Of a DNA stretch of 64,000 bases, positions 42,733-47,662 are shown in pieces. The notes under the pieces are model-generated. The model worked only from the letters and a program-made list of their open reading frames with translations. It had not been told where the DNA came from and did not search any database. Within the stretch, counting starts at the first letter, position 1, and each line of letters opens with the position of its first letter. The translations under genes were made by a program, and so were the position numbers. The stretch comes from Pseudanabaena sp. M085S1SP2A07QC. GTDB taxonomy: Bacteria > Cyanobacteriota > Cyanobacteriia > Pseudanabaenales > Pseudanabaenaceae. The stretch spans positions 1-64,000 of the forward strand of contig JADBWK010000090.1 in assembly GCA_020404895.1 (NCBI GenBank). Direction: 5' to 3'.

Positions 42733-44997
42733 ATGAGAAAGACAGTTGCAAGATTTTGCGCGATCGCATTGATCACGATTTTAATAGTGGTTTCGCTTGG
42801 CGGCTTATACCCTCAGAGTTCGCGAGCCGATGGCAATCCGATCACGATCGCCGTAGCTGCACCTCTTAGTGGTGATGGCGCGAGTGGCGGTCAAGAAATC
42901 GTCGATAGTATCAAGCTATATATTGATGCGACCAATCGCGATGGGGGCATCAATGGTCGTCAGCTTAAATTAAATGTTTTTGACGACAAGGGCAATGCTG
43001 ATGGGGCAACTCAAGTTGCTAACGAAATTTCTAAAAGTGAGGCTCTAGTGGTGTTGGGGCATCGCACTTCTGATGCTTCGATCGCGGCGGGTAACATTTA
43101 CCAAGAACGCAAGTTGCCAGCAATTACAGGTACGGCAAATAATCCTAAAGTTACCACGGATCGCCCTTACTATTTTCGGATAATTTATACTAATCCTGAC
43201 TTGGCAAAAACGCTGTCGCTCTATGCACAGCAGGTATTACAGTTCAAGACGGCTAGTGTAATTTATGACAAAGCCAGCAAAAATGAACAGACCCAATCTG
43301 AAGTAATTAAATCGGCTTTTGAAGCTAATGGTAATGGCAAAATTCAAAAAACTTGGGCGATTGACTCTGAGCCATCTAATCGGAAAGCGTCAGTGCAACA
43401 AATCGTCAATGAAATTGCCGCCGAGACTGATGCAGGAATTTTGTTTTTAACTTTGGGCAAAGAGGATGTTGCTGAAGATTTTTTAGTGGCGCTGAAACAA
43501 AAGGGGCTGAAAAACATCATTTTAGGTGAACAAGCTTTAGCAAGAGAATCTTTTGCAAAGCGTTTTGAAAAATACGCTGAAGAAAAGAAAAGCGCAGGTT
43601 TCTTTACTGATGGCATGTATGTGCCAGCGCCAATCTTATTTGATAGTGCTGGAGCTGATGCCCAAGATTTTCTCACTGCTTATCAAAAAGCCTATAACAA
43701 GACTCCTTCCTATTTAGGAGCTAAGTTTTATGAGGCAGCGATCGCGGCAGTCGATGCAATTCGCAAAGCTAATCCAAAATTAACGACAGCAAGCTTAGAA
43801 AGCGATCGCGAACAGGTGCGAGATGCTTTAGCAAAGCTAAACAATCGTAAGGTCGGGATACGAGGTTTAACGGGTTTGCTATATTTCAATAGCGATCGCA
43901 ATAGCGATCAACCTGTGCGTCTTGCTCAATTTCAAAATTACAAACTGATCTCCGCATCCCAGCAATTTACACCAATTCCTAACCCAGAACGCCTGAATTT
44001 ACCGAAAGAAATCCAAGCTGGAAGCATCGTTCAATCGGGCGATCAATATTTTTGGCGGCAGCGTGTAGTTTACTCAGGCATGGATATCAATAAACTAAAT
44101 CGCATTGATAAATCTACCTTTACCGCCGATTTTTACGTGTGGTTCCGCTATAGCGGCAATGATGAGCCTACGGAGATTCAGTTTCCTGATGCGGTCACCA
44201 ATAGCGTCAACCCCACAGCTCCAGTATTTGATGGCAAAGCCCCAATCAAGGCGCAGGTCGTCAATGGCTTAAACTATCGTCTCTATCGGGTACGCGGTGA
44301 ATTTCGGAATGCCTTTGATTTTCGTGACTATCCCTTTGATTCACAAAGATTAAACTTGCGTTTTGATAATCCCAATCTATCGACTGAGCGGTTGATCTAT
44401 GCGATCGATAAGGTTGGCTTAAAATTACCAAGACCCGAAGCCGAAGAACGTAAACCATTTCAAGGGCTTCAGCTTTGGAATTTTAAAAGTATTACCTATT
44501 TCCAAGACTCATCGCGCAGTACCTCCACTCAAGGCGATCCTGATTTGTTTCAGTCCAATGTGCAGGTCGAATACCCTGGGTTAAGTATACGCATGACGTT
44601 TCAGCGCAAGACCTTAGTATTTCTATCTAAGAATGGTTTACCCCTGATTTTGTTGTCAGGTTTAACCTATTGCTGCTTATTCTTCCCCTATACGATGTTT
44701 GTGCCTCGCACAATGGCTCCTGCATCAGCATTACTATCGGGAATTGTGTTGTTGTTATCTTTTAACAATCAACTGCCTGAAGTTGGCTATACCGTTGTGA
44801 TGGAATATGTGTTTTATGTCTATTTCTGTCTGTGTTTACTACCAATTATCGTCACAGCGATCGGGACGAAGCTAGATAAAGAGGGACATAAAAAAGCCTT
44901 TAAATATTTGAATATTGCGTCTTGGATTCTCTATCCATTGATTGTAATTGTCACATTTGCCACTTTTTTAATTAATTATGGCGATCGCTTAGCATAG
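42733..44997 (+). CDS. type I periplasmic-binding protein fused to a pentameric ligand-gated ion channel (Cys-loop superfamily)
   Basis: signal peptide; ITIAVAAPLSGDGASGGQEIVDSIKLYIDATNRDGGINGRQLKL (LIVBP-like); FDFRDYPFDSQRLNLRF Pro-loop motif; four C-terminal TM helices with M2 VPRTMAPASALLSGIVLLLSFNNQLP; preceded by GAAGG. Confidence 0.9.
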   Translation: MRKTVARFCAIALITILIVVSLGGLYPQSSRADGNPITIAVAAPLSGDGASGGQEIVDSIKLYIDATNRDGGINGRQLKLNVFDDKGNADGATQVANEISKSEALVVLGHRTSDASIAAGNIYQERKLPAITGTANNPKVTTDRPYYFRIIYTNPDLAKTLSLYAQQVLQFKTASVIYDKASKNEQTQSEVIKSAFEANGNGKIQKTWAIDSEPSNRKASVQQIVNEIAAETDAGILFLTLGKEDVAEDFLVALKQKGLKNIILGEQALARESFAKRFEKYAEEKKSAGFFTDGMYVPAPILFDSAGADAQDFLTAYQKAYNKTPSYLGAKFYEAAIAAVDAIRKANPKLTTASLESDREQVRDALAKLNNRKVGIRGLTGLLYFNSDRNSDQPVRLAQFQNYKLISASQQFTPIPNPERLNLPKEIQAGSIVQSGDQYFWRQRVVYSGMDINKLNRIDKSTFTADFYVWFRYSGNDEPTEIQFPDAVTNSVNPTAPVFDGKAPIKAQVVNGLNYRLYRVRGEFRNAFDFRDYPFDSQRLNLRFDNPNLSTERLIYAIDKVGLKLPRPEAEERKPFQGLQLWNFKSITYFQDSSRSTSTQGDPDLFQSNVQVEYPGLSIRMTFQRKTLVFLSKNGLPLILLSGLTYCCLFFPYTMFVPRTMAPASALLSGIVLLLSFNNQLPEVGYTVVMEYVFYVYFCLCLLPIIVTAIGTKLDKEGHKKAFKYLNIASWILYPLIVIVTFATFLINYGDRLA

Positions 44998-45090
44998 AAG
45001 CCAACAGTAAAGTGGTGACGATTTGCGTTGCTATCTTGCTGTTGTTTTAGAAATGTCAAAGCATAGCAACTACAGCAATTTTCGAGCAAA

Positions 45091-46371: not shown

Positions 46372-47662
46372 ACCATGGAAATTTTCGCTATCCCGCATCC
46401 TCGCCATTTTTTTATTGGGCATTTCCTTCACTTTTGCTACCTATATTGGGGCAGGAGCAAACATCGCAACGACTGCTATCTTTGCTCAATCTAATCCTGA
46501 AGCGACAAATAATCCCACAACATCTGCACCTAATCAGTCAGTGGCAAACCCCATAGTTACTGATGCAGCAAAGCCCCCAGCAAACAAAGATGGTGCTGCT
46601 AATCCAACAAAGCCGCCAGTTAAAGATAACGTCAAAAAAACTACTACACCAGACGAAAACCCACTGGAGATAAATAATCTTGTTCCTTTTCCTTCTAATG
46701 TGGCTCTCCCTATAAATGTAGGTGTAGCCTTATTTGTAAATAACATCAGCAAAATCAACGAAGCTAGTAATACCTTTGAGAGTCAGTTTGATTTAAGGTA
46801 TAACTGGAAAGATCCTCGCTTAGCCTTCGATACTGGCGAGATGGGAACAAATCGTTTGGAGTTTGGACAAGAAGCTGCTGTAGCAAAATTAGCCACCATC
46901 TGGAATCCGCAGATTAAAATCACTAACATCATCGAGAAAGATGCGCAAATTGTTCCAGGCTTATTCATTCATTATGATGGTGAAGTGGAGCTAATCCAGC
47001 GTGTCAAGGCGACCTTCGAGACCAAATTAAATTTAGATGCTTTCCCCTTTGACTCCCAGTCTCTGCTCGTAGCTATGTTGTCATCTAAATACAATTCTAA
47101 TCAGATTGCATTGACGCAGGATCAGAATGATCTTAACGAATCAGGACTCGATCCAGACCTCAAAGTTAATGGATGGAAGCCACAGGGAATATCCTTTAAA
47201 ATGACACAGCTACGCGCTTGGAATGGCGCATTTCTCCGTCAGATTGAAGCTCGCGTGGGTATGAAACGTATCCCGAATGCGATTCTAGGCTCGATCTTCA
47301 CGCCATTCTTCTTGACTTTAATCGTACCGACAATCTTTACATTCTTCGCAAATGTAGAATTAGCTCCCCGTCTGGTCGCTTGGAGTGGCTCAATCTTGGC
47401 ATTGGTGGCGCTCACTTTCACATTCTCAGTGCGATACCCTTGGCTCGGCAGCAACAGCCTCGTGTCGCAGATATTCACCGCAGGACATGCCTTTCAGCTT
47501 ATCTCAGTACTCTTATCGATAACTCTGTTTAATCCAGATGTAGCTAAAAAGATGGATCGGTTCATCGTCGCCGAACTCGTCAGCTATCTACGGTGGCTAG
47601 TTCCTGTCGGCTTCTTGGGTGTCTTGATCACTAAGTCACTACTCACAGCTTTTGACTGGTAA
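46364..47662 (+). CDS. pentameric ligand-gated ion channel subunit (Cys-loop superfamily)
   Basis: PINVGVALFVNNISKINEASNTFESQFDLRYNWKDPRL; LNLDAFPFDSQSL; four TMs with M2 APRLVAWSGSILALVALTFTFSVRYP. Confidence 0.9.
   Translation: MRRPWKFSLSRILAIFLLGISFTFATYIGAGANIATTAIFAQSNPEATNNPTTSAPNQSVANPIVTDAAKPPANKDGAANPTKPPVKDNVKKTTTPDENPLEINNLVPFPSNVALPINVGVALFVNNISKINEASNTFESQFDLRYNWKDPRLAFDTGEMGTNRLEFGQEAAVAKLATIWNPQIKITNIIEKDAQIVPGLFIHYDGEVELIQRVKATFETKLNLDAFPFDSQSLLVAMLSSKYNSNQIALTQDQNDLNESGLDPDLKVNGWKPQGISFKMTQLRAWNGAFLRQIEARVGMKRIPNAILGSIFTPFFLTLIVPTIFTFFANVELAPRLVAWSGSILALVALTFTFSVRYPWLGSNSLVSQIFTAGHAFQLISVLLSITLFNPDVAKKMDRFIVAELVSYLRWLVPVGFLGVLITKSLLTAFDW

What the first reader, a model, noticed from the sequence alone, without database searches (positions are those of the whole stretch)
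42733..47662. Three-gene sensory cluster: PBP-pLGIC fusion, Cache-HAMP sensor without output, and a second pLGIC subunit
Seen: two different pentameric ligand-gated ion channel subunits sit on the same strand within 5 kb, with a double-Cache-like + HAMP membrane protein between them. The Cache protein ends shortly after HAMP, with no methyl-accepting, kinase, cyclase or other output domain. Knowledge: GLIC and ELIC are bacterial pLGICs, and some bacterial pLGIC fusions to solute-binding domains have been noted before; a paired-subunit locus with an output-less Cache sensor is not something I recall being described. Inference: this may be a heteromeric receptor whose ligand inputs (PBP-I and Cache) converge on a channel instead of a phosphorelay.
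Basis: partly seen in the sequence, partly recalled or inferred. Interest (0 to 1): 0.92.

Follow-up and report, generated by a model that had tools for sequence, protein, structure and literature searches.

The report
Chemoreceptor-like protein paired with channel
This bacterial DNA carries a gene for a relative of our neurotransmitter-gated ion channels, tied to a gene for a membrane sensor that has lost its own signalling part; the pair recurs in distantly related bacteria, so the sensor probably works by acting on the channel.

Summary
In this Pseudanabaena (cyanobacterial) locus, 42733-44997 encodes a PBP-I::pLGIC fusion, 45211-46371 a dCache_3 membrane protein with a HAMP-like tail and no output domain, and 46364-47662 a second pLGIC. 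All are under strong purifying selection. The three-gene unit is not the conserved entity: it is contiguous and intact in 7 of 26 Pseudanabaena genomes and was not found outside the genus. In two species the Cache+pLGIC2 pair sits elsewhere, apart from the fusion, with its own upstream region.

The conserved entity is the two-gene Cache+pLGIC pair. It recurs in Sericytochromatia, Pseudomonadota (including Polaromonas and Methylococcales MAGs) and a Leptospirales MAG, usually with overlapping reading frames. The paired pLGICs form one clade (support 100/99.7), their tree matches the Cache tree (r=0.97), and in three lineages the Cache protein ends 12 residues after its second membrane helix. 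Such a protein cannot signal through a cytoplasmic domain, so the channel is its likely output.

Tasneem et al. (2004) had already noted PBP-I::pLGIC fusions, and a stand-alone Cache gene beside a pLGIC in Rhodopseudomonas; the parts are known. New here are the conserved subfamily, its spread, the output-less anatomy and the co-inheritance. Heteromerisation of the two channels has no positive support.

The parts
42733..44997 (+). PBP-I::pLGIC fusion channel subunit (754 aa from the ATG at 42733; a TTG at 42676 is an alternative start)
   Evidence: dN/dS 0.04-0.07
42838..43935 (+). PBP-I (Peripla_BP_6, branched-chain amino-acid-binding type) domain, residues 36-401
   Evidence: Pfam E=9e-37; NCBIfam LivJ-like PRK15404 7e-18
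44023..44994 (+). pLGIC ligand-binding domain + four TM helices of the fusion; contains the YPFD Pro-loop
44701..44778 (+). M2 pore helix of the fusion (VPRTMAPASALLSGIVLLLSFNNQLP); no acidic residue at -2' to 0'
   Evidence: alignments A3 and A9; numbering by alignment, inference
45063..45210 (+). upstream region that moves together with the Cache+pLGIC2 pair in two other species; probable own promoter region
   Evidence: blastn blocks in L034 and L036 begin at 45063
45211..46371 (+). dCache_3 two-TM membrane receptor with HAMP-like tail and no output domain (386 aa)
45325..46071 (+). periplasmic dCache_3 sensory domain, residues 39-287
   Evidence: Pfam E=1.7e-27; dCache chemoreceptor folds in Foldseek, 3e-5
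46171..46308 (+). HAMP-like region, residues 321-366; absent from the proteobacterial partners L101, L102 and L104
   Evidence: (sub-threshold)
46364..46371 (+). 8-nt overlap of Cache stop and pLGIC2 start (translational coupling likely)
   Evidence: short overlaps in other pairs
46364..47662 (+). second pLGIC subunit (pLGIC2, 432 aa; signal region and low-complexity tail of about 100 aa, then LBD + 4 TM)
46694..47134 (+). pLGIC2 ligand-binding domain (PF02931), with FPFD Pro-loop
47363..47440 (+). M2 pore helix of pLGIC2 (APRLVAWSGSILALVALTFTFSVRYP); A-P-R at -2'/-1'/0'
   Evidence: alignment with GLIC; inference

Best explanation
The core is a two-gene sensory channel module: a dCache_3 two-TM membrane protein plus a pentameric ligand-gated channel. 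The Cache protein probably descends from a chemoreceptor-type (dCache-HAMP-MCP) ancestor and lost its cytoplasmic output. It most likely binds a small periplasmic ligand and acts as an auxiliary, allosteric subunit of the pLGIC, through periplasmic and/or transmembrane contact, so that ligand binding is read out as ion flux rather than as phosphorylation or methylation-coupled signalling. Shown here: the domains, the lack of an output domain, the conserved adjacency with overlapping reading frames, the single clade of paired channels, co-inheritance, and purifying selection. Inferred: a physical complex, ligand-dependent gating, and the sign and ion selectivity of the response. In Pseudanabaena the pair sits downstream of an independent PBP-I::pLGIC fusion channel (probably sensing an amino-acid-like ligand), itself likely a separate homopentamer.
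For: Adjacency: a Cache-profile scan of 85,488 species genomes found intact Cache genes, each next to a pLGIC where the contig extends far enough, in Pseudanabaena, Sericytochromatia, Polaromonas, Methylococcales and Methylovulum, and a pair with a Cache gene split in two ORFs in Leptospirales. Searches not selected on Cache agree: of 8 pLGIC loci in 349 Pseudomonadota genomes, 3 are Cache-paired, and in one proteobacterial order the 5 best channel hits are all Cache-paired while weaker ones are not. Tree: 20 paired pLGICs form one clade, 100/99.7, against 23 others. Co-inheritance: distance correlation 0.97 over 19 pairs, 0.95 over 9 deep lineages, Mantel p=0.011, 11 of 16 splits shared. Anatomy: Cache ends 12 residues after TM2 in Polaromonas, Methylococcales and Methylovulum; the nearest output-bearing relatives found are dCache_3-HAMP-MCP proteins. 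The pair moved as a unit in two species. dCache-type fold. Fusions of Cache to pLGICs in other prokaryotes (PMC549065) give Rosetta-stone support.
Against: No experiment and no complex prediction. The Cache model is only moderate (pLDDT 68). Several distant pairs come from MAGs. Co-inheritance of adjacent genes would also arise if they were merely co-transcribed. The ligand is unknown. The window Cache still carries a HAMP-like region, which could in principle act on another protein.
Confidence: 0.6

Rival explanations
1. One reading: the fusion and pLGIC2 co-assemble as a heteropentamer, with the Cache protein as a third component of one receptor.
For: The three genes are contiguous and co-directional in 7 of 26 Pseudanabaena genomes, with an eighth whose Cache gene is interrupted. 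Both M2 helices lack the acidic residue at -2'/-1' and carry P-R at -1'/0'. Tandem pairs of different channel genes exist elsewhere (L044, L091, L156).
Against: The two channels lie in distant clades. Fusion and pair are separated in two species and each occurs without the other in many. Only 3 of 11 other pair-bearing genomes have any fusion-type channel, on another contig. The pair has its own conserved upstream region.
Confidence: 0.1
2. The Cache protein is a chaperone, assembly or trafficking partner of the channel and not a sensor (as RIC-3 acts for nicotinic receptors, or alpha2-delta acts in trafficking).
For: Strict pairing and co-inheritance fit any obligate partner.
Against: A dCache_3 domain is a sensory fold, and the matches are amino-acid-binding chemoreceptor domains. 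Its conserved core is extensive.
Confidence: 0.15
3. The Cache protein signals in trans to another cytoplasmic protein through its HAMP-like tail; the channel is merely co-expressed.
For: A HAMP-like tail is present in cyanobacterial and some proteobacterial members. AF1503-type HAMP receptors without output exist (PDB matches to AF1503 HAMP).
Against: Three lineages keep the pairing with only 12 residues after TM2. No kinase or MCP gene was found recurring beside the pair.
Confidence: 0.12

Closest known systems
PBP-I::pLGIC fusions and the Rhodopseudomonas pLGIC + stand-alone Cache operon (Tasneem et al. 2004, PMC549065)
   Same: PBP-I fused N-terminally to a pLGIC core; a Cache gene in a predicted operon with a pLGIC; proposed to cooperate as a chemoreceptor.
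   Different: They had one Cache operon in one species and no subfamily, no topology or lost-output argument, and no co-inheritance. Whether the Rhodopseudomonas pair belongs to this clade was not tested here.
GLIC (Gloeobacter violaceus)
   Same: pLGIC2 has the GLIC domain plan, a bacterial Pro-loop (FPFD) and no large intracellular domain.
   Different: About 20% identity; different clade; pLGIC2 is partnered with a Cache protein; the -2' Glu of GLIC is replaced by A-P at -2'/-1'.
DeCLIC (PMC9897478, PMC12664993)
   Same: A prokaryotic pLGIC regulated by an extra periplasmic domain.
   Different: The extra domain is fused and made of two beta-rich lobes that bind calcium; here the sensor is a separate two-TM dCache protein.
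CaV alpha2-delta auxiliary subunit (PMC9901441)
   Same: A separate membrane-associated dCache-containing protein modulating an ion channel.
   Different: Works-like analogy only: voltage-gated channel, dCache_1 plus VWA domains, no shared ancestry of the complex shown.
dCache_3-HAMP-MCP chemoreceptors (for example Azospirillum WP_168220542.1) and the output-less HAMP receptor AF1503
   Same: Same periplasmic domain, two-TM topology and HAMP position as the Cache protein (MCPs); absence of an output domain (AF1503, from general knowledge).
   Different: MCPs keep the signalling domain, and the three examined are not paired with a channel; AF1503 has no channel partner that I know of.

Membership tests
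pentameric ligand-gated ion channel (pLGIC2) | Ligand-binding domain with Pro/Cys-loop motif followed by four TM helices | tested here: met
   PF02931 2e-21; FPFD; PDB matches to GLIC and GLIC chimeras 4e-15 to 6e-14; TM segments
pentameric ligand-gated ion channel (fusion C-terminal part) | LBD + 4 TM core homologous to solved pLGICs | tested here: met
   Profile of the fusion clade matches GABA-A alpha-5 at 4e-16, with 251 distinct chains below 1e-3; single sequence 1.7e-6; AlphaFold model too poor to use (pLDDT 39.6)
pentameric ligand-gated ion channel | Assembles as a pentamer and conducts ions | not testable with these tools
   Needs biochemistry or electrophysiology
PBP-I::pLGIC fusions of Tasneem 2004 | PBP-I domain fused N-terminal to a pLGIC core in one ORF | tested here: met
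   relatives across cyanobacteria and in about 15 of 48 genomes of one proteobacterial order
methyl-accepting chemotaxis proteins / sensor kinases (Cache protein) | Cytoplasmic MCP signal, kinase or cyclase output domain | tested here: not met
   The ORF ends after the HAMP-like tail; the same holds in relatives
dCache_3 receptors | Periplasmic dCache_3 domain between two TM helices | tested here: met
   Pfam 1.7e-27; Foldseek matches to dCache chemoreceptors; two hydrophobic segments
HAMP domain | Pfam HAMP above curated cut-off | tested here: inconclusive
   22.1 bits against a cut-off of 25
CaV alpha2-delta-like auxiliary subunit (analogy) | Physical association with, and modulation of, a channel | not testable with these tools
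   Only genomic association shown
heteromeric pLGIC | Two subunit types co-assemble | tested here: inconclusive
   Genomic evidence argues against obligate co-assembly; not excluded

The most novel reading that the evidence does not exclude
A widespread bacterial receptor class in which an output-less dCache membrane protein is the obligate ligand-sensing auxiliary subunit of a pentameric ligand-gated channel: chemoreceptor input wired directly to an ion channel, a bacterial functional parallel of the dCache-containing alpha2-delta subunits of animal calcium channels.
Probability: 0.5. Interest if true: 0.85.

Novelty: new variant of a known kind. Interest (0 to 1): 0.64.

Why it matters
To my knowledge the natural ligands and physiological roles of bacterial pLGICs are still largely unknown, although GLIC and ELIC are standard structural models. 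A conserved dedicated sensor partner gives a handle on both: the dCache domain can be screened for ligands in isolation, and the channel tested with and without it. If confirmed it would show chemoreceptor-type sensing coupled straight to ion flux, and an auxiliary subunit for a prokaryotic pLGIC, for which I found no precedent in the held literature beyond the 2004 proposal.

Tried and rejected
Three-gene conserved operon: rejected, since the trio was found only in Pseudanabaena and is split or degraded in several species. Heteromer of recently duplicated subunits: rejected as a duplication, the clades are distant. Truncated or pseudogenised chemoreceptor: rejected for the window, dN/dS 0.055-0.10 and output-less in every relative examined; real pseudogenes do exist in G009, G022 and G025. 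Structure of the fusion: model failed with a shallow alignment (pLDDT 39.6), not used. A profile search with A7 gave E about 1e-104 to GLIC but A7 contains GLIC, so it was ignored. An early tree had two fusion rows in the wrong frame; corrected. Plasmid search for pLGIC2: no match. Ion selectivity from M2: left open, because paired relatives vary between A-P-R and D-K-R or E-K-R. PBP ligand identity: LivJ-like but binding residues not established. Literature searches found no later description of the Cache+pLGIC pair.

Full report
What is there. The three genes lie on the + strand as described. The first (42733-44997) is a PBP-I domain of the branched-chain amino-acid-binding type fused to a pLGIC core. 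The PBP part is clear in Pfam (9e-37). The channel part is not caught by Pfam's channel models but is a pLGIC by PDB sequence search: 1.7e-6 for the single sequence and 4e-16 for a seven-row profile. The second (45211-46371) is a dCache_3 domain between two membrane helices, followed by a HAMP-like stretch that scores just under Pfam's cut-off, and then the stop. The third (46364-47662) is a GLIC-like pLGIC (PF02931 2e-21; PDB matches to GLIC and GLIC chimeras 4e-15 to 6e-14). The second and third overlap by eight bases, ATGCGTAG. All three are under strong purifying selection, dN/dS 0.04-0.10.

The organism. Near-identical loci in the species genomes are Pseudanabaena, so the window is from that cyanobacterial genus.

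Is the trio a unit? In 26 Pseudanabaena genomes the fusion is present in about 20 (plus one split over two contigs), the Cache+pLGIC2 pair intact in 9, and the contiguous intact trio in 7; an eighth (G002) has the trio with its Cache gene interrupted. Two genomes (G009, G025) hold degraded remnants of the pair behind the fusion. In two species (G008, G017) the pair lies at another locus, the block matching the window from base 45063 to about 47690; in G008 the original locus closes up at that place. A second, paralogous Cache+pLGIC pair (about 43% identical) occurs without the fusion beside it in five species. No trio was seen outside the genus. So the pair is the unit, and the fusion is a frequent neighbour.

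The pair elsewhere. A Cache-profile scan of the species-level genome collection found the pair in Sericytochromatia (two MAGs, gene order reversed in one), a Polaromonas MAG, two Methylococcales MAGs and a Leptospirales MAG whose Cache gene is split in two frames. One Sericytochromatia Cache gene lies at a contig end and could not be judged. That scan selects on Cache, so two searches selected on the channel instead. In 349 Pseudomonadota genomes only 7 have a PF02931 channel; of their 8 channel loci 3 are Cache-paired. In one proteobacterial order, the five best matches to the channel profile all have the Cache gene adjacent, and the weaker matches do not. Start and stop codons of the pair mostly overlap or nearly touch.

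One lineage, inherited together. In a tree of 43 channels, the 20 Cache-paired ones are one clade (100/99.7) and the seven PBP fusions another (100/99), far apart. The Cache proteins form one clade against three dCache_3-MCP proteins (99/97). Cache and channel trees agree: r=0.97 over 19 pairs, r=0.95 with Mantel p=0.011 over nine deep lineages, 11 of 16 splits shared.

Why the channel is the probable output. The nearest output-bearing relatives found are chemoreceptor-type proteins with dCache_3, HAMP and, in the one scanned with Pfam, an MCP signalling domain. In the paired family the signalling domain is gone in every member examined. In Polaromonas, Methylococcales and Methylovulum even the HAMP-like part is gone: 12 residues follow the second membrane helix. 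A membrane receptor without a cytoplasmic part, always beside a channel, is best explained as a partner of that channel. The predicted Cache model is moderate (pLDDT 68), but its best small-domain matches are ligand-binding domains of chemoreceptors such as Tlp3 and PctA (3e-5). Natural fusions of Cache domains to pLGICs, reported in 2004 (PMC549065), point the same way. What is not shown: physical contact, ligand, gating, ion selectivity. The pore helices of both window channels lack an acidic residue at -2' to 0', but paired relatives vary there, so I draw no conclusion about selectivity.

Heteromer? Not excluded but not favoured. The two channels are distant, they separate freely, and of 11 other genomes with the pair only three have a fusion-type channel, on another contig. 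In the six pair-bearing genomes first examined, PF02931 finds only the paired channel.

What was known. Tasneem et al. (PMC549065) reported PBP-I fusions in alpha-proteobacteria, Cache/MCP-N fusions in other prokaryotes, PBP-II genes beside pLGICs, and one stand-alone Cache gene beside a pLGIC in Rhodopseudomonas. They proposed that these domains cooperate with the channel in chemoreception, probably as homopentamers. DeCLIC is, by its authors' account, the only pLGIC with an extra N-terminal domain characterised so far (PMC9897478, PMC12664993). The analogy to alpha2-delta subunits of animal calcium channels, which contain dCache domains (PMC9901441), is one of working principle only. My searches of the held library found no later paper on the Cache+pLGIC pair; subscription literature is mostly not held.

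Verdict. A real and interesting finding, but for a different reason than first given: not a three-gene heteromeric receptor, but a conserved two-gene module of an output-less dCache receptor and a pLGIC.

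Noticed in passing
L051:5156-8920, L091:903-4463 and L091:4553-8101: Cyanobacterial channel proteins of 1183-1255 aa combine PBP-I, pLGIC core and a C-terminal PBP-II (SBP_bac_1) domain in one chain; in L091 two such genes are in tandem.
   Followed up: partly
L044:5086-9712; L156:39-3411; L147; L087:310-7297: Other tandem or clustered channel genes: two PBP-I::pLGIC fusions in tandem (L044), a fusion overlapping a plain pLGIC (L156), two convergent pLGICs (L147), and two pLGICs with a PBP-I gene within 7 kb (L087).
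   Followed up: no
window 47613-47674 and 51003-51064: A 62-bp direct repeat, including the 3' end of pLGIC2, flanks the MmeI-like restriction-modification gene 47729-50914. Species without that gene have one copy, as if the cassette had inserted at the gene's 3' end.
   Followed up: partly
window 44981-44990 and 47664-47686; L035:7511-7530: HIP1 octamers (GCGATCGC) lie at both ends of the Cache+pLGIC2 block, which is missing between them in the sister strain L035; recombination at HIP1 sites may have moved or removed the block.
   Followed up: partly
window 46364-46690: The N-terminal Pro/Asn-rich tail of pLGIC2 (about 100 aa) evolves fast (dN/dS 0.34) and is absent or much shorter in paralogous and distant partners.
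   Followed up: no
L106:7974-9067: The Leptospirales Cache gene is split into two abutting frames (overlap at 8609), either a sequencing error or a true split.
   Followed up: no
L033:9167-10178: About 1 kb of extra sequence interrupts the Cache gene of G002 after codon 261, while pLGIC2 downstream stays open.
   Followed up: no
L123:1506-7013: A pLGIC followed by a phosphonate-type PBP-II gene and a PAS-histidine kinase/receiver gene on the same strand, resembling the PBP-II operons described in 2004.
   Followed up: no
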